Source: Pseudomonadota bacterium (GTDB taxonomy: Bacteria > Pseudomonadota > Alphaproteobacteria > Rhizobiales > Hyphomicrobiaceae). From it: 64,000 nucleotides of DNA. A model generated the notes under the pieces. That model had not been told where the DNA came from, did no database searches, and saw nothing but the letters and a program-made list of their open reading frames with translations. The DNA lies in assembly GCA_018242255.1 (NCBI GenBank), contig JAFECH010000350.1, forward strand, positions 56,215 through 120,214. Direction: 5' to 3'. The translations under genes were made by a program, and so were the position numbers. This document shows, piece after piece, positions 15,595 to 62,691 of the stretch (position 1 is the stretch's first letter; every line of letters begins with the position of its first letter).

Positions 15595-16629
15595 TCAGAA
15601 CACCGAATGATCGCCGCGTTCGACGCATGCCTCGCCGTTGATCACGCGTTCGTAGAAATCGAACAACGTTTCGGTGCCGAACGACGGAGTGGCGGCAGCG
15701 TCGTAGCGTCCCGTTTCGGGATCAAGCACGAGCATCGATTCCTTGGCGTAGTAGCACCCGATGCGAGCCAGTTCTGCCTTATCGGCTAACGGCGGGACGA
15801 ATGAGCCGATCGCGGTTAGCGCCCGAGCTACGCTGTCCATAAAGAAAAAGGGTACGTGGCGGAACCTCGGCTCGCGCCCCAACAGAGCAAACAGTCGTTC
15901 GCCCTGCTGTTTCGGCGTGATGGCTTCTCCGGGCCCGCCGATCGGCAATATGCGATTGTGCTTGCTGGTGTCATCGACGCAGTCGACAAGAAATTGGCCA
16001 AGATCGTCGTCGCTGATGGGTTTGCATGCGGTCGACGTCCCATCGCCGAACAAGAGGAAGGGCTTTCCTTTCATCACGCGATCGATCTGGCCGGAGAGCG
16101 ACTTAAAGAACGCCGTGGGTCTGACGATTGAATACGTCATTCCAGATTCGATAAGCACTTTTTCAAACGCGAGCTTGGCCTGCTGGAACGCCAAAAGCGG
16201 TTTTTGAACGCATATTGCCGACAGCAGAATCATCTGCCGAACTCCGGCCCGCTTCGCGATCGCCAATGCATTCATGTGTGCGTTATGATCGATGGCCCAG
16301 GCATCTCTCGGAACTCCGGTCCTAGAGGCAAGGCAGGAGATCAATATATCAAAACGCTCGTCGCAAAATCCGTCGCGTTCCAGCGATGCCGGATTGGTCA
16401 CATCGCCCAATCGCAAAGTTGCGCCTTCGAGGATTTTCTCGCTGTCGCCTGCCGTCGAAGCGCTGATGATGCATGCGCGCCGGCGAACAAAGCATACGAC
16501 TTCAACATTGCGGCGCAGCAACGCGCGCACAGTCGCACGGCCGATCGTGCCCGTTGCGCCGAGAACCAAGACGCGCCGTGACGGAGAGCGATTTGCTGTT
16601 GGCGACGTGTGCGAACTATCAATCATCAT
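15595..16629 (-). CDS. bciA: Divinyl (proto)chlorophyllide 8-vinyl-reductase, BciA type
   Basis: A 344-residue NADPH-dependent SDR-type reductase that converts the 8-vinyl group of (bacterio)chlorophyll precursors to ethyl. The Rossmann motif RVLVLGATGTIGRATVRALL is near residue 20, followed by LISCLASRTGVPRDAWAIDH, SIVRPTAFFKSLSGQID and GKPFLLFGDGTSTACKPISD. All are typical of plant and bacterial BciA. The length matches the family, which runs around 330-400 aa. It stands alone, outside the bch operons, and I see no perfect PpsR box before it. The flavin/Fe-S alternative BciB is not in the window. Confidence 0.9.
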   Translation of the reverse strand: MMIDSSHTSPTANRSPSRRVLVLGATGTIGRATVRALLRRNVEVVCFVRRRACIISASTAGDSEKILEGATLRLGDVTNPASLERDGFCDERFDILISCLASRTGVPRDAWAIDHNAHMNALAIAKRAGVRQMILLSAICVQKPLLAFQQAKLAFEKVLIESGMTYSIVRPTAFFKSLSGQIDRVMKGKPFLLFGDGTSTACKPISDDDLGQFLVDCVDDTSKHNRILPIGGPGEAITPKQQGERLFALLGREPRFRHVPFFFMDSVARALTAIGSFVPPLADKAELARIGCYYAKESMLVLDPETGRYDAAATPSFGTETLFDFYERVINGEACVERGDHSVF

Positions 16630-26959: not shown

Positions 26960-27862
26960 TCAGTGGAGAGTGCCCTTGTCTACCCTGGGATTAAGTTCCC
27001 CTAGCATCAATTGCAGCCGAGATAGGCCCTCGGAGAACTCGTTAAAGCTGCAGATATCGGCTTTCCAAAGATCTCCGATGAGGCGAGCGGCGGGCACAAT
27101 CAGGACTTGGAAGAGGGATTCAAGAGACGCTCCCTGTAGGCGTTTGGTTTCGATGTAAGATGTTGCTACGCGCACGTCGCGCGCGAGGACCAAATGAACG
27201 AGCTCGGCGACGTCGTCGTCTGCTTCGACGATGCCCGCGGAGAGCGAGAGGTTGAGCGCCGATGTTGAATCTGCGCAGCGATGGGCGATCAGCAGCCGCG
27301 GTATAATTTCGCCTTCGATGGTTCGGGTGAGTTGAGATCTGCGAATGTCGCGATCGAATTTCTCGCGCATGGATGCTGTCGCTTTGAGATTTTTCGCGCT
27401 GGCGGGCGGCGTTTTCCCGCCTTTATGCTTCGCTTGATCTCGACCGTGATCTGCGAGCCATTTTTCCGCGATACTGCAAACATCCGCTTCCCAAGCTTCG
27501 AGCTCGAGTGGCTTGACCAAATAGCCATCGGCTCCTGCGAGATAGCACGCATCGATGTCTCGCGGATGGGATGAAGTCGATAGGATAAGTACCGGTATTT
27601 TCCGCTCAGGATCGCGGGCTCGCAACGCCTTCAGCAGCTGGATGCCGTCGACGCCTGGCAGGTTGAGATCGAGAAGAATCAATGAAGCGTTCAGCTCAGC
27701 GGTTTCAGAATCGCTGTCGATCAGAGCCTGCATGGCCGCGCGACCGTCGTCCCATCTTTCGACGGGGTTGTTTACACCTGCCGAACGCAGAGCGAACTCC
27801 AGTGTCATGAAGTCGGTGTCGTTGTCTTCAATCGACACTATCGTGCCAGGGTGGCGCGTCAT
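26960..27862 (-). CDS. Response regulator with AerR/PpaA-like helical output domain
   Basis: A 300-residue protein. Residues 5-135 are a receiver domain with acidic pocket Glu12-Asp13, phosphoacceptor Asp65 (LILLDLNLPG) and Lys117 (YLVKPLE). A linker of about 40 residues follows. Residues 178-292 (TRTIEGEIIPRLLIAH ... PAARLIGDLWKADICSF ... LSRLQLMLGEL) align along their length with residues 48-158 of the AerR encoded at 60326 (HQTIESEIVPRLLLAH ... PSARYLGELWKQDVCDF ... LSKLQQLLRDL). The cobalamin-binding domain is absent. It overlaps the bacteriophytochrome gene by four bases, so it is the likely kinase partner. The output target is inferred to be PpsR or a related regulator. Confidence 0.9.
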   Translation of the reverse strand: MTRHPGTIVSIEDNDTDFMTLEFALRSAGVNNPVERWDDGRAAMQALIDSDSETAELNASLILLDLNLPGVDGIQLLKALRARDPERKIPVLILSTSSHPRDIDACYLAGADGYLVKPLELEAWEADVCSIAEKWLADHGRDQAKHKGGKTPPASAKNLKATASMREKFDRDIRRSQLTRTIEGEIIPRLLIAHRCADSTSALNLSLSAGIVEADDDVAELVHLVLARDVRVATSYIETKRLQGASLESLFQVLIVPAARLIGDLWKADICSFNEFSEGLSRLQLMLGELNPRVDKGTLH

Positions 27863-30141
27863 GTCGTGACCTCCGGTGCAAGCGTGAAATAGAACGTTGA
27901 ACCCTTGCCGAGCGCGGACTCGACCCAAATTCGTCCCGCGTGTCTTTCAACCGCTCGTCGCGTAATCGTCAGGCCAGCGCCAATGCCGCCACCGAATTCA
28001 TCTTTGCCGTGAATTCGTCTGAAAATCTCGAAAATTCGCTCCCGTGAGTCTTCGGAGATGCCGATGCCATTATCGCGTACATAATAACGGCGAGGCGTCG
28101 TGTTCACGACTCCGATTTCTACCCATCGTCGCGGCTTGTCATTATATTTTTTTGCGTTGGTGATGAGGTTCGTGAAAATTTCGCGGGTGCGAACACGGTC
28201 ACATTTTTCCATGCCCAACGATCGCGGCCGGCGAATTTCGACGTCGTGATTGCCGGCCGAATGACGACAGTCTGTAATCGCCTCGTCAACCAGCTCATCC
28301 ATGTCGACCGGCTCAATCTTCAGCTCAAGACGGCCTGTTCGCGAATATTGCAACAGCGATTCAATGAGATCGTCCATCCGACGCGTCAGTTTGAGTATTG
28401 TTTCAAGCTGCTGCCTGCCTTGCTCATTGAGCTTCCCCTCAAGCGCGCGCTTTAGAAAACTCGCCAGCAGATGCACACCTCGGAGCGGCTCTTTAAGATC
28501 GTGCGACGCAACATAAGCGAAGCTATCGAGTTCGACATTTGCGTCCTGAAGCTCGCGGTTTATGCGCTCAATCTGCTGGGCTCTATTCAAAATAACTTCT
28601 GAAATTGCTTGACGCAGATTGGCGGCAATCTCTTGCTCATCCTTTCGCCAGGGTTCTGATCGGCCGGTCACGCTCTCCTTCCAAAGTGCGAATGAGGTGC
28701 GGGGCTGCAGCCGAACTTGTCCGTCGGTTTCACTGATTTTTACAGGTTTTTTGGGGTCTCCCGCCCACTTAACGATTTCGATGTGCTCTGGTCTGAACCA
28801 CATTAAGAAATCTGCGCTCTGTGGAGATATTCTCGCCGCCAGGGCGCCGCTCGCTACAGACTTATACGCAGCCGCTGGCGAATAGATCTCTGGAAGGCGA
28901 TTGGTGGCAAAGATCATTTGGTCTTGCGTGGCAAGCCAGGCGACGAGCGACTCCAGTTCGCGCTTGGGCGGGGTTATGCCGAGGGTCGAGATCTTGCCTC
29001 TCGCGACAACCGCCGCGCCCGTCGCCGGAATTTGGGACAGCAGGTTGGGAGATTTGTCTGCAATTCCCAGAGAATCGTGCAAATCCGGTTCGCGGCTCAG
29101 CCTTTCGACGAGTTGATCGGTAACGGCGGTCATCCGCAGCCGTTCATTGAAGCCGTCAGCATCCTCCTTCGCTCCCATCAGGAGCGAAAGCATATGAGAC
29201 AGAAACTCCGCCGCCATGCGCGCTTCGTATTGAACCTGCATCGGCCCGCTGTGATGCATGGCGGAAATCAAGCCCCACAGCTGTCCCTCCTTCATGAGGG
29301 GCATGACCATGGTCGATTTGACGCCCATGTTTTTGAGATAGCCCGAATACATCACTGAGACGCTGCGCAGGATGGCGAAGCTCATATCGACCGGCTTATG
29401 AGTGGCCGGATGGAACTCAGGATAAAGCCGAACAGGTACGTAGTTGACGTCGGGCAAGTGTCTTAGCCAACTCAATCCAAACATGCGCCGCGCAGGCGCG
29501 GGTATGTCGGTCGCCGGATAGTGCAGGCCCAGGTACGGCTCTAGTTTTGCGCGCTTAGACTCGGCAACAACGTGACCGCTGCCATCCTCGGCAAATTTAT
29601 ATGCCATGACGCGGTCGTAGCCGGTAAAGGTCCGAATGCGCTCGACCGCGAGATCGAGAAACGATTGTAGGCCGCGGGTTTTTTCCAACTCCGCCACAGC
29701 TTCCCGGACATCGGAATACAGGCGCGTCGTCGGCGCATCCGGCTGCGTTGCGACTAATTCAAGTTCCAGGATCAGAACGCCGCCGCAACGGTGAGCAAAG
29801 ATGTTTATTCCGCGCGCTGACCCGGCAAATGACTCTCGGACTACGTGGACCGGCCCGTTTTCAAGCGACATGCGTTGCAGTCGATCGAGCATCTGCGGTG
29901 TGCTGTGCCCGAAAACGTTCGCTATGGATTTGCCGAGCAAAAGTTCGGCGGGCTGGCCGACGAAATCCGCGCAATTCTCGCTTGCCTGACGAATGATATA
30001 CTCAGGCTCGTCGACGATGAGCATTGCACCGTGCGACTGGATCGCGCCAGGAAATTGAACCAGTTCGCGATCACAATTCGAAAGGTCCACATTCTTGGCG
30101 GTGATGAGCGAGCTAGATCTGGGATGATCGGATGCGTTCAT
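27859..30141 (-). CDS. bphP: Bacteriophytochrome histidine kinase
   Basis: A 760-residue red/far-red sensor kinase. The PAS domain has the biliverdin-binding Cys23 (LSNCDRELVQFPGAIQ). The GAF domain has YPATDIP with Asp212 and His296-His297. The PHY domain carries the tongue motif PRTSF (480-484). HisKA has SHDLKEPL with His547, and the HATPase has N-box NLITNAKKYND and DNGIGI. Unusually, the GAF segment that normally reads S-P-x-H-x-[EQ]-YL-x-NMGV is SVMYSGYLKNMGV, so the near-invariant chromophore-contacting His is Tyr265. It is followed by its response regulator and lies downstream of heme oxygenase, which makes the chromophore. Confidence 0.95.
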   Translation of the reverse strand: MNASDHPRSSSLITAKNVDLSNCDRELVQFPGAIQSHGAMLIVDEPEYIIRQASENCADFVGQPAELLLGKSIANVFGHSTPQMLDRLQRMSLENGPVHVVRESFAGSARGINIFAHRCGGVLILELELVATQPDAPTTRLYSDVREAVAELEKTRGLQSFLDLAVERIRTFTGYDRVMAYKFAEDGSGHVVAESKRAKLEPYLGLHYPATDIPAPARRMFGLSWLRHLPDVNYVPVRLYPEFHPATHKPVDMSFAILRSVSVMYSGYLKNMGVKSTMVMPLMKEGQLWGLISAMHHSGPMQVQYEARMAAEFLSHMLSLLMGAKEDADGFNERLRMTAVTDQLVERLSREPDLHDSLGIADKSPNLLSQIPATGAAVVARGKISTLGITPPKRELESLVAWLATQDQMIFATNRLPEIYSPAAAYKSVASGALAARISPQSADFLMWFRPEHIEIVKWAGDPKKPVKISETDGQVRLQPRTSFALWKESVTGRSEPWRKDEQEIAANLRQAISEVILNRAQQIERINRELQDANVELDSFAYVASHDLKEPLRGVHLLASFLKRALEGKLNEQGRQQLETILKLTRRMDDLIESLLQYSRTGRLELKIEPVDMDELVDEAITDCRHSAGNHDVEIRRPRSLGMEKCDRVRTREIFTNLITNAKKYNDKPRRWVEIGVVNTTPRRYYVRDNGIGISEDSRERIFEIFRRIHGKDEFGGGIGAGLTITRRAVERHAGRIWVESALGKGSTFYFTLAPEVTT

Positions 30142-30253
30142 ATCCGAATCCTACGGTCGCCGCCGTAGACAGCGCATGCGCGCACACAGATGTGCCGCCC
30201 TAACAGGCGCACGGCGATATCCTCCACGAGTGCCCTCTTTGTGGGGCTAAGTT

Positions 30254-30282
30254 ATCGTCACTGTACGCAGGTAATTTGTCAA
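30254..30282 (-). promoter_or_regulatory. Possible promoter for bphP-response regulator
   Basis: On the minus strand TTGACA (30282-30277), 17 bases, GACGAT (30259-30254). The -35 is perfect and the -10 is weak. The 143-base gap before bphP otherwise holds only a small CTACGG/CCGTAG hairpin. Confidence 0.3.
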
Positions 30283-30284
30283 GT

Positions 30285-30896
30285 CTAGGCGACGGCCGAC
30301 GAGGTTATCTTTTCGCGACACTCGGGAAGCCAGCGCTGAAAAAACAGGAATGTCGCCTTAGCAGATTCAACGACTTGCTCGGCCCGGACAGAGAAGGGGT
30401 CTATCGCATTGACCGATGCAAGGAATGTTCGCCAAAGCAGTTTGCCGCCTTCGCCGTAACCCCAGAAAAACTCCGCTCCATGCGTCTTCGTAAGGCCGAG
30501 CCGCGCCTCGACTGTGGGTGCCATGGCACGAGCGCCAAGTGCGGAGCCTTCGAGGACGTAAACGCAGCCCAAGCCGGATTCGATTGTTCGATTTAGCGGT
30601 GCCTCCAGGTTCATTCCGCGATCCAGCGTCAAGGGATCGATGCCGAGCGTTCTTAAGTCACTCTCGATGAGTTCTGACCGGCGGCGGTCGCTATAGTCGA
30701 AACCGAGTGGACTGAAATCAATCGGGCGCAGGGATTTCTCTGCCGCCGCGTAGAGGGCCCACAGCCGTACCAGATAGGCGGCATAGCGACCGCGAGTTGA
30801 AATTTGTTCGTCGATCTGGACGGCGCGCTCCAGATCTTCGTGCAGTATCCGAGTTTCCTGCCGAAGCCGCGAATGCAATGTCATAATGTTTGTCAT
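30285..30896 (-). CDS. bphO: Biliverdin-producing heme oxygenase
   Basis: A 203-residue HmuO/BphO-type heme oxygenase that opens heme to biliverdin IX-alpha, the chromophore for the phytochrome encoded next. The proximal heme ligand is the His in ETRILHEDLERAV, and the distal helix region is GCVYVLEGSALGARAMAP. I take ATG 30896, with GAAGGTG upstream; GTG 30905 is also in frame and overlaps the crtC stop. Co-transcription with crtC links chromophore supply to pigment genes. Confidence 0.93.
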   Translation of the reverse strand: MTNIMTLHSRLRQETRILHEDLERAVQIDEQISTRGRYAAYLVRLWALYAAAEKSLRPIDFSPLGFDYSDRRRSELIESDLRTLGIDPLTLDRGMNLEAPLNRTIESGLGCVYVLEGSALGARAMAPTVEARLGLTKTHGAEFFWGYGEGGKLLWRTFLASVNAIDPFSVRAEQVVESAKATFLFFQRWLPECREKITSSAVA

Positions 30897-60155: not shown

Positions 60156-60325
60156 TTTTTTCCTGACTGGTTTTGATTGTCAGACTTTCCTTGCGACAAT
60201 ATCGTCCAGTATGATTTACTGTCGCAGGGCCGCCCGACATTAGCAAGCAATCGCATCGGGTGACGGCAATAAAAAACGTAACCGGCGCATACGCTTTCGG
60301 CAGCGCGTCGGCGGGAGGGAAGCCA

Positions 60326-61207
60326 ATGTCCACCATTCGGCCCCTAGTGGAATTGAAGCGGTACTGGCACGATTGCAGTATTGGAGACTGGAGCATTCGC
60401 TTCGATCGTAGGCAGGAAGCTGCGCACGACCGCCGACTTTCATGTGTCGAGCAGAACGTCCTGCATCAAACCATCGAATCCGAGATCGTGCCGCGCCTCT
60501 TGCTCGCGCATAGTACCCATGGGACCAAACTCGCGAGCGACCTGAATTCGTCGCCTTCGATCGCGATGGAAGAGGTCGAAGCTTTCGTTCAGGTGCTGTT
60601 GTCCGAGAACGTCTTCGCCGCGAAGTCTTTCGTTTTGGCGTTACGCAATCGAGGCGTTTCATTGGACGTTGTTTTGCTTTGGCTTTTTGCGCCTTCGGCA
60701 CGCTATCTCGGAGAGCTGTGGAAGCAGGATGTCTGCGATTTTGTAGATGTCACCATAGCCCTATCGAAATTGCAGCAGCTGCTCCGCGATCTTGCTCCCG
60801 AAAACGACGAGGATCAGTTCCCCCTGGCGGCACAGCAGCGGGCGTTTTTGGCGGTGATGCCCGGTGACCAGCATACGTTCGGACTTTTCATAGTTCAGGA
60901 GTTCTTTCGTCGAGCGGGCTGGCACGTGTGCGGTGGTAGCTGCGACACGACCGAAGAGCTGTTGAATTTCGCCCATAGTGAGCCGTTTGACGTCGTCGGG
61001 CTTTCGGTGAGCAACGATGCGCCGGCGAGCACGCTTTCGGATCTGGTGGTTTCCTTGCGGAAATCAGCACTTAACCGCGACATGCGTATGATGGTCGGAG
61101 GCAGATTTTTCCTAGAAAATCCACAGCTTGTAGCGTGTATCGGCGCGGACGCGACGGCTCCTGACGGGCGCAGGGCCGTTTCCAGCTTTCCAACTTGCTT
61201 GACATAA
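60326..61207 (+). CDS. aerR: AerR/PpaA cobalamin-binding antirepressor of PpsR
   Basis: A 293-residue regulator. Residues 46-158 form a helical cap (HQTIESEIVPRLLLAH ... LGELWKQDVCDF). Residues 170-275 form the B12-binding domain with GDQHTFGLFIVQEFFRRAGW (His183 is the probable cobalt ligand) and FDVVGLSVSND. Homologues bind a light-sensitive cobalamin and PpsR/CrtJ. ATG 60326 has GGGAGGGAAGCC in front and fits better than GTG 60260. It precedes ppsR, the classical pair. Confidence 0.93.
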   Translation: MSTIRPLVELKRYWHDCSIGDWSIRFDRRQEAAHDRRLSCVEQNVLHQTIESEIVPRLLLAHSTHGTKLASDLNSSPSIAMEEVEAFVQVLLSENVFAAKSFVLALRNRGVSLDVVLLWLFAPSARYLGELWKQDVCDFVDVTIALSKLQQLLRDLAPENDEDQFPLAAQQRAFLAVMPGDQHTFGLFIVQEFFRRAGWHVCGGSCDTTEELLNFAHSEPFDVVGLSVSNDAPASTLSDLVVSLRKSALNRDMRMMVGGRFFLENPQLVACIGADATAPDGRRAVSSFPTCLT

Positions 61208-61266: not shown

Positions 61267-62691
61267 GTGTTCGCTCGAGAAGCAGGTATCGTGTTCCGGG
61301 CTCCGAAGAGAACCCTCGGTGATCTCGATGCTGATAGTGCGGCGAAGCTCATCGCGGCCGCCGCTGACATTGCGTTGATCGTCGACGGTAAAGGCATCAT
61401 TCGCGATGTCGCCTTCGGTAGCGAGGACCTTTCTGCGGAGGGCTTCGGCAAGTGGGTCGGAGAGCCGTGGATCGAAACAGTTACGATCGAAAGCCGCGGC
61501 AAGATCGAAGAGCTGCTGCGTGGCGCCACGTCGGCGAAGGCGCCGATCGAGTGGCGTCAGGTGAACCATCCCTCCAAGCGGGGCGACATTCCCATCCGAT
61601 ACTCGGCTATTCCGATCGGCGGGAACGGCAGGTTCGTTGCCGTCGGCCGCGATCTCAGGCCGGTCGCTGCGCTGCAGCAGCGTCTCGTCGATGCGCAGCA
61701 ATCGATGGAAAAGGAATACGCTAGGCTTCGGCACGCTGAAACCCGTTATCGCGTGCTCTTTCAGATTGCGTCGGAGCCCGTGCTCATCGTCGATGCTAAT
61801 ACGTTACGGCTGGTCGACGCCAATCCTGCGGCCACCTTGCTTCTGAACCGCAATAATAAGCGGATTATCGGAAAGGCCTTTCTGGAGATTTTTAACTCCG
61901 AAAGTTCCAAGGCAATTCAAGCTCAGATGGCCTCGATAAAAGCGACGGGACGTGCGGATGAAGTGAAGGCGCAGCTCGTCGAAAATAAGCGTGAGTGTTT
62001 TGTCTCTGCCTCGCTTTTCAGGCAGGAAACGTCGTCCCATATCCTCGTTCGGCTTTCGCCTGTCGTTGCCGGCGGAGTGGTGCCCAAGCCGACGTCTAAA
62101 GTTTTCAGCGTCGTCGAAAACCTCCCCGAGGGCTTCGTCGTCACCGATCTCGATCGGCGTATCCTGACTGCCAATCCTGCTTTTCTCGAACTCGTCCAGC
62201 TCGCCAATGAGGAGCAGGTTCGCGGCGAGTTGATCGATCGGTGGATCGGTCGTCCGGGCGTCGATATTACGGCCCTCGTTGCGAACATTCGCGAGCATGG
62301 CGCGGTCCGAAATTTCGCGACTGTTCTGCGGGGCGAGTACGGTGCTTACGAAAGTATCGAGATCTCTGCGGTTTCCGTTCCGACCGGGGAGAATCCGTGC
62401 TTTGGGTTCACCATTCGGAACGTTGGGCGCAACGACATTCCAAAGGCACGATCGAAAAGCGAACTGCCGCGGTCTGTCGAGCAGCTCACGGAGCTGGTGG
62501 GCCGTGTTCCGCTAAAGGAGCTGGTGCGCGAGACGACCGACGTGATCGAAAAGTTGTGCATTGAGGCCGCGCTGAAGCTGACCGGCGATAATCGCGCGTC
62601 AGCGGCCGAGATGTTGGGATTGAGCCGGCAAAGCCTGTATTCGAAGCTCCGGCGCTTTGGCATCAGTGACATTGACGATGACCTCGATTGA
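61267..62691 (+). CDS. ppsR: PpsR/CrtJ redox- and light-responsive repressor
   Basis: A 474-residue repressor of bch, crt and puc genes, recognising TGT-N12-ACA. It has an N-terminal PAS-like domain, a helical linker (ALQQRLVDAQQSMEKEYARLR), two PAS domains (from about residue 158 and 278) and a C-terminal Fis-type helix-turn-helix (NRASAAEMLGLSRQSLYSKLRRF). Cys431 (EKLCIEAALKLTGDN) is the conserved redox cysteine near the HTH, and Cys244 may be its partner. The start is GTG 61267 with a poor Shine-Dalgarno. Confidence 0.95.
   Translation: MFAREAGIVFRAPKRTLGDLDADSAAKLIAAAADIALIVDGKGIIRDVAFGSEDLSAEGFGKWVGEPWIETVTIESRGKIEELLRGATSAKAPIEWRQVNHPSKRGDIPIRYSAIPIGGNGRFVAVGRDLRPVAALQQRLVDAQQSMEKEYARLRHAETRYRVLFQIASEPVLIVDANTLRLVDANPAATLLLNRNNKRIIGKAFLEIFNSESSKAIQAQMASIKATGRADEVKAQLVENKRECFVSASLFRQETSSHILVRLSPVVAGGVVPKPTSKVFSVVENLPEGFVVTDLDRRILTANPAFLELVQLANEEQVRGELIDRWIGRPGVDITALVANIREHGAVRNFATVLRGEYGAYESIEISAVSVPTGENPCFGFTIRNVGRNDIPKARSKSELPRSVEQLTELVGRVPLKELVRETTDVIEKLCIEAALKLTGDNRASAAEMLGLSRQSLYSKLRRFGISDIDDDLD

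What the first reader, a model, noticed from the sequence alone, without database searches (positions are those of the whole stretch)
26960..30896. Phytochrome kinase paired with a response regulator that carries an AerR-like output domain
Seen: heme oxygenase, a full bacteriophytochrome histidine kinase (Cys23, His547) and a response regulator (Asp65) are consecutive. The C-terminal half of the regulator (178-292) aligns with the helical half of the AerR encoded in the same PGC, and it stops where AerR's cobalamin domain begins. Known: AerR/PpaA antagonise PpsR/CrtJ, with B12 as the light sensor. Inference: here the sensing part is swapped for a phosphorylated receiver, giving far-red light a two-component route to PpsR, in parallel to B12-AerR. 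I do not recall this domain fusion being described.
Basis: partly seen in the sequence, partly recalled or inferred. Interest (0 to 1): 0.88.

Follow-up and report, generated by a model that had tools for sequence, protein, structure and literature searches.

The report
Phytochrome response regulator with AerR cap
In a small group of Hyphomicrobium-related bacteria, the partner protein of a red/far-red light sensor carries a piece of a different, vitamin-B12-based light regulator, which suggests a new wiring from phytochrome to the master switch of photosynthesis genes.

Summary
bphP (27859-30141, minus) overlaps by 4 bp a 300-aa response regulator (26960-27862, minus): a complete receiver (REC), a variable linker, and a C-terminal domain matching only AerR's four-helix cap (37% over 124 aa, E 9e-23), without AerR's cobalamin domain. 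The fusion is conserved: eight REC-CAP genes in Hyphomicrobium and relatives, each directly behind an orthologous bphP. Of 99 family genomes, the same six hold fusion and bphP ortholog; all 38 other family caps have a B12 domain. Class (385) and phylum (398) samples gave no further fusion at the limits used. All six genomes also keep a normal AerR directly upstream of PpsR. In a published model the PpsR-facing surface of AerR is cap helix 4, which the fusions retain in altered form. Most likely BphP phosphorylates a REC-CAP regulator that acts on PpsR; phosphotransfer, PpsR binding and direction of effect are inferred, and a report that one PpaA needs B12 to bind PpsR speaks against cap-only docking. 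New variant of a known kind; I found no description in the papers I could search.

The parts
26960..27862 (-). Response regulator REC-linker-AerR cap, 300 aa (ATG start; GGAGG with a 7-base spacer upstream)
27497..27841 (-). Receiver (REC) domain, residues 8-122; phospho-acceptor Asp65
   Evidence: Pfam PF00072 8.1e-17; top solved relatives include phytochrome response regulators RcpB, RcpA, Rcp1, DrRR
27347..27448 (-). Variable linker, residues 139-172 (24-44% identity to four relatives, against 46-76% for the two domains)
   Evidence: pLDDT mostly under 60
26975..27346 (-). AerR-type four-helix cap, residues 173-296, no cobalamin domain behind it
26993..27046 (-). Cap helix 4 (residues 273-290), the helix that faces the PpsR Q-linker in the published AerR-CrtJ model
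   Evidence: DSSP of the model; PMC9144470; residue counts
27859..30141 (-). bphP, type 1 bacteriophytochrome histidine kinase, 760 aa; its stop overlaps the regulator's ATG by 4 bp
30285..30896 (-). Heme oxygenase (biliverdin supply), not conserved at this place in relatives
   Evidence: PF01126 1.3e-10; present in 2 of 6 clusters
60260..61207 (+). Ordinary AerR (cap plus cobalamin-binding domain), upstream of ppsR
61267..62691 (+). PpsR/CrtJ repressor, proposed target; Q-linker motif with all six named residues at 61675-61731
   Evidence: TIGR02040 510.6 bits
33410..33427 (+). TGT-N12-ACA palindrome (PpsR-type, recalled) in the crtD/crtE gap, at the head of the crtD-crtC-heme oxygenase-bphP-regulator run
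   Evidence: one found at the divergent crtD/crtE start region in 6 of 6 loci

Best explanation
A bacteriophytochrome kinase and its cognate response regulator form a two-component branch into PpsR. Light changes phosphorylation of the regulator at Asp65 (inferred from intact residues and gene coupling). The receiver controls, probably through dimerisation or release of the cap, an AerR-type four-helix bundle (homology shown; fold predicted). The cap docks on the Q-linker of PpsR as AerR and AppA are thought to do, and raises or lowers repression of the photosynthesis genes (inferred, direction unknown). The phosphorylated receiver takes the place of the B12 domain as input, alongside the ordinary B12-AerR route kept in the same genome.
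For: Cap match to AerR E 9e-23; cap profile finds AerR 7TE2 only; the 50 listed Foldseek hits of the cap model are all cobalamin-binding light-responsive proteins (CarH/LitR and similar, AerR 7te2, a MerR-family protein, a photocobilin), probability 0.99-1.00 but E only 0.012-0.11. REC closest to phytochrome regulators. 8 of 8 REC-CAP genes directly follow a bphP ortholog. The same 6 of 99 family genomes hold fusion and bphP ortholog, and all 44 cap matches there were read. In 6 of 6, AerR lies directly upstream of PpsR and the six Q-linker residues are intact (window). Cap Q284 (AerR Q112) 8 of 8, W266 8 of 8. TGT-N12-ACA at the crtD/crtE start region in 6 of 6. Precedent: R. rubrum HP1, PpaA/AerR-like without recognisable cobalamin domain, still controls pigment synthesis (PMC10734443, passages).
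Against: No binding or phosphotransfer data. In D. shibae the PpaA-PpsR two-hybrid signal needs cobalamin (PMC10890935, passages). Helix-4 residues V and T, invariant in the 31 AerR caps aligned, are F (7 of 8) and S/T/E (6/1/1) in the fusions, and the S109 equivalent varies. The AerR-CrtJ interface is itself a model built on AppA-PpsR. pTM 0.48, so the domain arrangement is not known. B12-contacting cap residues stay conserved, which this reading does not explain.
Confidence: 0.58

Rival explanations
1. The cap does not touch PpsR itself but works on AerR: it pairs with AerR, or covers the cobalamin held by AerR's Rossmann domain in trans, so that phytochrome tunes the B12 route.
For: The cap residues that contact or shield B12 in SAerR (R88, W94, F101; PMC9144470) are kept in the fusions although they have no B12 domain: R 7 of 8, W 8 of 8, F 7 of 8. 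AerR is present in 6 of 6 genomes (and window).
Against: These residues may simply pack the bundle. No case of cap sharing between AerR molecules is known to me.
Confidence: 0.14
2. The regulator is mainly a phosphate sink or relay for BphP, as LhfD is described for RpBphP2/P3, and the cap serves oligomerisation or an unrelated partner.
For: Solved phytochrome response regulators such as RcpB, Rcp1, DrRR and RPA3017 are single REC chains. LhfD (RPA3017) was dispensable for LH4 in R. palustris and described as a phosphate sink (PMC6879726, passages).
Against: The cap is kept in 8 of 8 and is nearly as constrained as the REC (pN 0.19-0.39 against 0.13-0.32 in four comparisons), inside a photosynthesis cluster with ppsR and aerR.
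Confidence: 0.2
3. Assembly or frame artefact joining a REC gene to an aerR fragment.
For: The window's assembly has 404 contigs, and most of the named relatives are metagenome assemblies.
Against: Eight genomes show the same open frame and place; one record is the strain H. zavarzinii ATCC 27496.
Confidence: 0.01

Closest known systems
AerR/PpaA antirepressor family (SAerR structure 7TE2)
   Same: Four-helix cap, 37% identity to the AerR of the same cluster
   Different: No cobalamin-binding Rossmann domain; not beside ppsR; fused behind a receiver
RcpB/Rcp1/DrRR, single-domain phytochrome response regulators
   Same: Closest REC domains; gene directly behind the phytochrome kinase
   Different: Those are REC alone; this has a cap as output
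RpBphP1-PpsR2 of Rhodopseudomonas palustris
   Same: A phytochrome acting on PpsR
   Different: There the phytochrome (PAS9-HOS output) forms a complex with PpsR2 itself (PMC6899989, passages); here a kinase with a separate regulator
RpBphP2/P3-LhfD-LhfE-LhfA of R. palustris
   Same: Phytochrome kinases with a REC regulator controlling antenna genes
   Different: Output to pucBAd through LhfA; no AerR-like part mentioned in the passages seen (PMC6879726)
HP1 of Rhodospirillum rubrum
   Same: PpaA/AerR-like protein without recognisable cobalamin domain that still controls photosynthesis (PMC10734443, passages)
   Different: 181 aa, beside ppsR, redox-linked; no receiver mentioned
AppA (SCHIC; BLUF part recalled) and LdaP (LOV)
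   Same: Other light inputs into PpsR
   Different: Flavin sensors that contact PpsR themselves; no phosphorylation step in what I read

Membership tests
PpaA/AerR antirepressors | Four-helix cap homologous to AerR | tested here: met
PpaA/AerR antirepressors | Cobalamin-binding Rossmann domain with the His ligand | tested here: not met
   Protein ends where the domain would start; no B12 match in the fusions
PpaA/AerR antirepressors | Gene directly upstream of ppsR | tested here: not met
   Lies behind bphP; a separate AerR holds the place beside ppsR in 6 of 6 (window)
PpaA/AerR antirepressors | Binds PpsR/CrtJ | not testable with these tools
   Co-folding of two chains not available; residue conservation only
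Phytochrome response regulators (Rcp1/DrRR type) | REC fold of this subgroup with intact phosphorylation residues | tested here: met
   (role of the residues recalled)
Phytochrome response regulators (Rcp1/DrRR type) | Gene coupled to a phytochrome kinase | tested here: met
   4-bp overlap in the window; 8 of 8 adjacent
Phytochrome response regulators (Rcp1/DrRR type) | REC alone, no output domain | tested here: not met
   A cap follows in 8 of 8
Phytochrome response regulators (Rcp1/DrRR type) | Accepts phosphate from the phytochrome kinase | not testable with these tools
   needs an assay
Type 1 bacteriophytochromes | PAS-GAF-PHY-HisKA-HATPase with N-terminal Cys and phospho-acceptor His | tested here: met
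Type 1 bacteriophytochromes | Photoconversion and light-dependent kinase activity | not testable with these tools
   needs spectroscopy and phosphorylation assays

The most novel reading that the evidence does not exclude
The AerR cap is a portable PpsR-facing output module that evolution moved from a B12 sensor to a phosphorylated receiver. Because the fused cap still carries the residues that shield cobalamin, it may also cover the B12 of AerR in trans, so that phytochrome phosphorylation and B12 photochemistry are read out in one hetero-complex on PpsR.
Probability: 0.1. Interest if true: 0.85.

Novelty: new variant of a known kind. Interest (0 to 1): 0.66.

Why it matters
What the single-domain partners of bacterial phytochrome kinases do is, to my knowledge, mostly unknown. 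Here the partner names its likely target by fusion: an AerR cap in a photosynthesis cluster. If confirmed, it gives PpsR a phosphorylation-controlled input, shows that the cap alone can be an output domain, and lets one test how AerR-type proteins act on PpsR without B12. One carrier, H. zavarzinii ATCC 27496, is a culture-collection strain (record title).

Tried and rejected
Chance similarity of the C-terminal half: rejected. Other sensor-cap fusions: a cap search of 385 class genomes gave 35 matches in 25 genomes; all 35 were read (30, 4, G000:C233): 34 have a B12 domain (one only at 7.6e-5) and 1, the window's own, does not. Plasmid collection: no match at 1e-15. TGT-N12-ACA over the whole window is not significant (10 found, 6.49 expected, 14 of 100 shuffles as high); only its repeat at the crtD/crtE start region carries weight, and each single case has a chance of 0.022-0.036 (120-base segments chosen around the observed site, mononucleotide shuffles, so favourable to the reading). 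The cap tree groups the eight fusions with modest support (80/83) and does not tell which AerR donated the cap. I first thought bchI always comes next; in three loci a lytB-like gene lies between. I also first wrote that BphP kinases with REC-only partners are common elsewhere; one search shows a kinase resembling BphP in 14 of 18 REC loci, but mostly in its kinase part, and a match over most of the phytochrome part is seen only in L053, so I withdrew the claim. One search read minus-strand loci in the wrong orientation; it was redone.
Full report
What is there. The window lies on a 120-kb contig of a 4.28-Mb, 404-contig genome and is a photosynthesis gene cluster. Its closest named relatives for this gene are Hyphomicrobium and Hyphomicrobiaceae records. 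On the minus strand run crtD, crtC, a heme oxygenase gene, bphP and a response regulator, followed by bchI, bchD and bchO (crt, bch, puf and puh names were given by me from order and recall, apart from those backed by Pfam or NCBIfam). The regulator starts at an ATG (27862) with a GGAGG upstream and overlaps the bphP stop by 4 bp. BphP is a complete type 1 phytochrome kinase with Cys23 and His547.

The regulator. Residues 8-122 are a receiver (8.1e-17). Its best solved match by sequence is RcpB (5.1e-23); by fold the first five entries are RcpB, RcpA, an R. rubrum receiver (3heb), Rcp1 and the Deinococcus phytochrome regulator (6xvu). E12, D13, D65, T96 and K117 are present and invariant in the eight REC-CAP proteins. 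Residues 173-296 match AerR 63-184 of the same cluster at 37% (E 9e-23); AerR's cobalamin match begins at 195. A profile of 14 caps finds AerR 7TE2 as the only significant solved chain (2e-9). AlphaFold2 gives the full protein pLDDT 75.4, pTM 0.48 and the cap alone pLDDT 72.3, pTM 0.57. The 50 listed Foldseek hits of the cap model are all cobalamin-binding light-responsive proteins (rank 1 E 0.012; AerR 7te2 at rank 5, rmsd 2.1 over 79 columns); none reaches E 0.001.

Distribution. In 99 family genomes the cap occurs in 27, with 44 matches. All 44 frames were read: 31 (6 REC-CAP, 25 cap-B12), 5 and 8 (all 13 cap-B12). A scan of genome contigs, with two peptide patterns that reach close relatives only, gave 15 relatives, 6 of them REC-CAP; four of these lie on contigs of the same length as ones already seen, so eight distinct genomes carry the fusion (G000, G069, G095, G068, G004, G077, L049, L050). 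In 397 order genomes 37 matched at 1e-25, with 40 matches; 30 were read and only two, already known, are fusions. In 385 class genomes at 1e-36 only the own genome and one REC-only protein matched; in 398 phylum genomes at 1e-40 only the own genome. These limits are tuned to this subgroup, so a distant independent fusion could have been missed; but the cap-only class search found no other cap without a B12 domain among all 35 matches.

Context. All eight fusions lie directly behind bphP. bchI follows next in five (window/L044, L039, L040, L049, L050); in three (L041, L042, L043) a LytB-family gene lies between (PF02401). The bphP ortholog (68-84% identical) is found in exactly the six of 99 family genomes that hold the fusion; eight other genomes have only distant phytochrome-like proteins (31-37%) at E 1e-80 or better. 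In all six, an ordinary AerR lies directly upstream of PpsR, and PpsR keeps the Q..L...Q...E..Y...R pattern. The heme oxygenase is at this place in two of six. A TGT-N12-ACA palindrome lies at the divergent crtD/crtE start region in six of six loci (outside the window the frames are bounded stop to stop, so exact start codons were not set), and two loci (L039, L042) have one shortly before the bphP frame. That this motif is the PpsR site is recalled.

Selection and history. Against G095 the REC and cap show pN 0.13 and 0.19 with pS 0.64 and 0.74, the linker pN 0.39; synonymous sites are near or past saturation in most comparisons, so ratios are rough. The eight caps form one side of a branch in a 39-row tree (80/83). 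Gain of a cap by a REC-only phytochrome partner is the simplest history (inference).

Mechanism. In PMC9144470 (text parts 2 and 3 of 5 read) the AerR-CrtJ complex is modelled on the AppA-PpsR structure: helix 4 of the cap faces the Q-linker, with T105, S109 and Q112 named. In the window regulator these are S277, S281 and Q284. Over the eight fusions the three positions are S/T/E (6/1/1), variable, and Q (8); the 31 AerR caps aligned have T in 31, variable, and Q in 28. The neighbouring V (31 of 31 AerR caps) is F in 7 of 8 fusions. So the docking helix is kept but altered. Residues reported to touch or shield B12 (R88, W94, F101) are kept in 7, 8 and 7 of 8, which PpsR docking by the cap alone does not explain and which motivates the rival in which the cap works with AerR. 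Against cap-only docking stands the B12 requirement of the D. shibae PpaA-PpsR contact (PMC10890935, passages); for it stands R. rubrum HP1 (PMC10734443, passages).

Literature. Nine searches returned listings; of these I saw titles and starts of abstracts. I read parts 2-3 of PMC9144470 and passages of PMC10734443, PMC6199135, PMC6879726, PMC10890935, PMC6899989 and PMC2890560. Nothing seen describes a REC-AerR-cap protein, but two papers on AerR domains that I would most want (10.1128/JB.00736-10 and 10.1128/JB.00374-15) are not held. The light inputs to PpsR in what I read are AppA, AerR/PpaA, LdaP and direct RpBphP1 contact; none is described there as a phosphorylated regulator.

Verdict. 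A real, conserved domain architecture that I did not find described; its proposed action on PpsR is likely but not shown.

Noticed in passing
G000:C233:17748-18083 (L004, L045 17340-18308): A second cap-B12 AerR-like gene on another contig of the window's genome; G069 has a counterpart (L109 4577-5449), there about 650 bp from a homolog of window ORF 15595-16629 (NAD-binding/NmrA-like).
   Followed up: partly
fusion caps, regulator residues 260, 266, 273: B12-shielding cap residues stay conserved although the fusions have no cobalamin domain.
   Followed up: partly
regulator residues 298-300 and the C-termini in L040, L046-L051: All eight fusions end in T-x-H or T-H, with an invariant C-terminal His beyond the cap.
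   Followed up: no
window 30285-30896: The heme oxygenase between crtC and bphP is found in 2 of 6 clusters only; where biliverdin comes from in the others was not looked at.
   Followed up: no
G000:C291:45074-46573 (L106): A second, distant phytochrome-like protein (36% over residues 16-525, 887-aa frame) in the same genome.
   Followed up: no
L039 10232 and L040 10394: TGT-N12-ACA palindromes between the regulator and bchI in two relatives; the window has no exact one there. Those at L041 11113 and L042 10934 fall inside the LytB-family frame.
   Followed up: partly
L041 10440-11399, L042 10405-11193, L043 10400-11293: A LytB-family gene (PF02401) lies between the regulator and bchI in three of the eight clusters.
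   Followed up: yes
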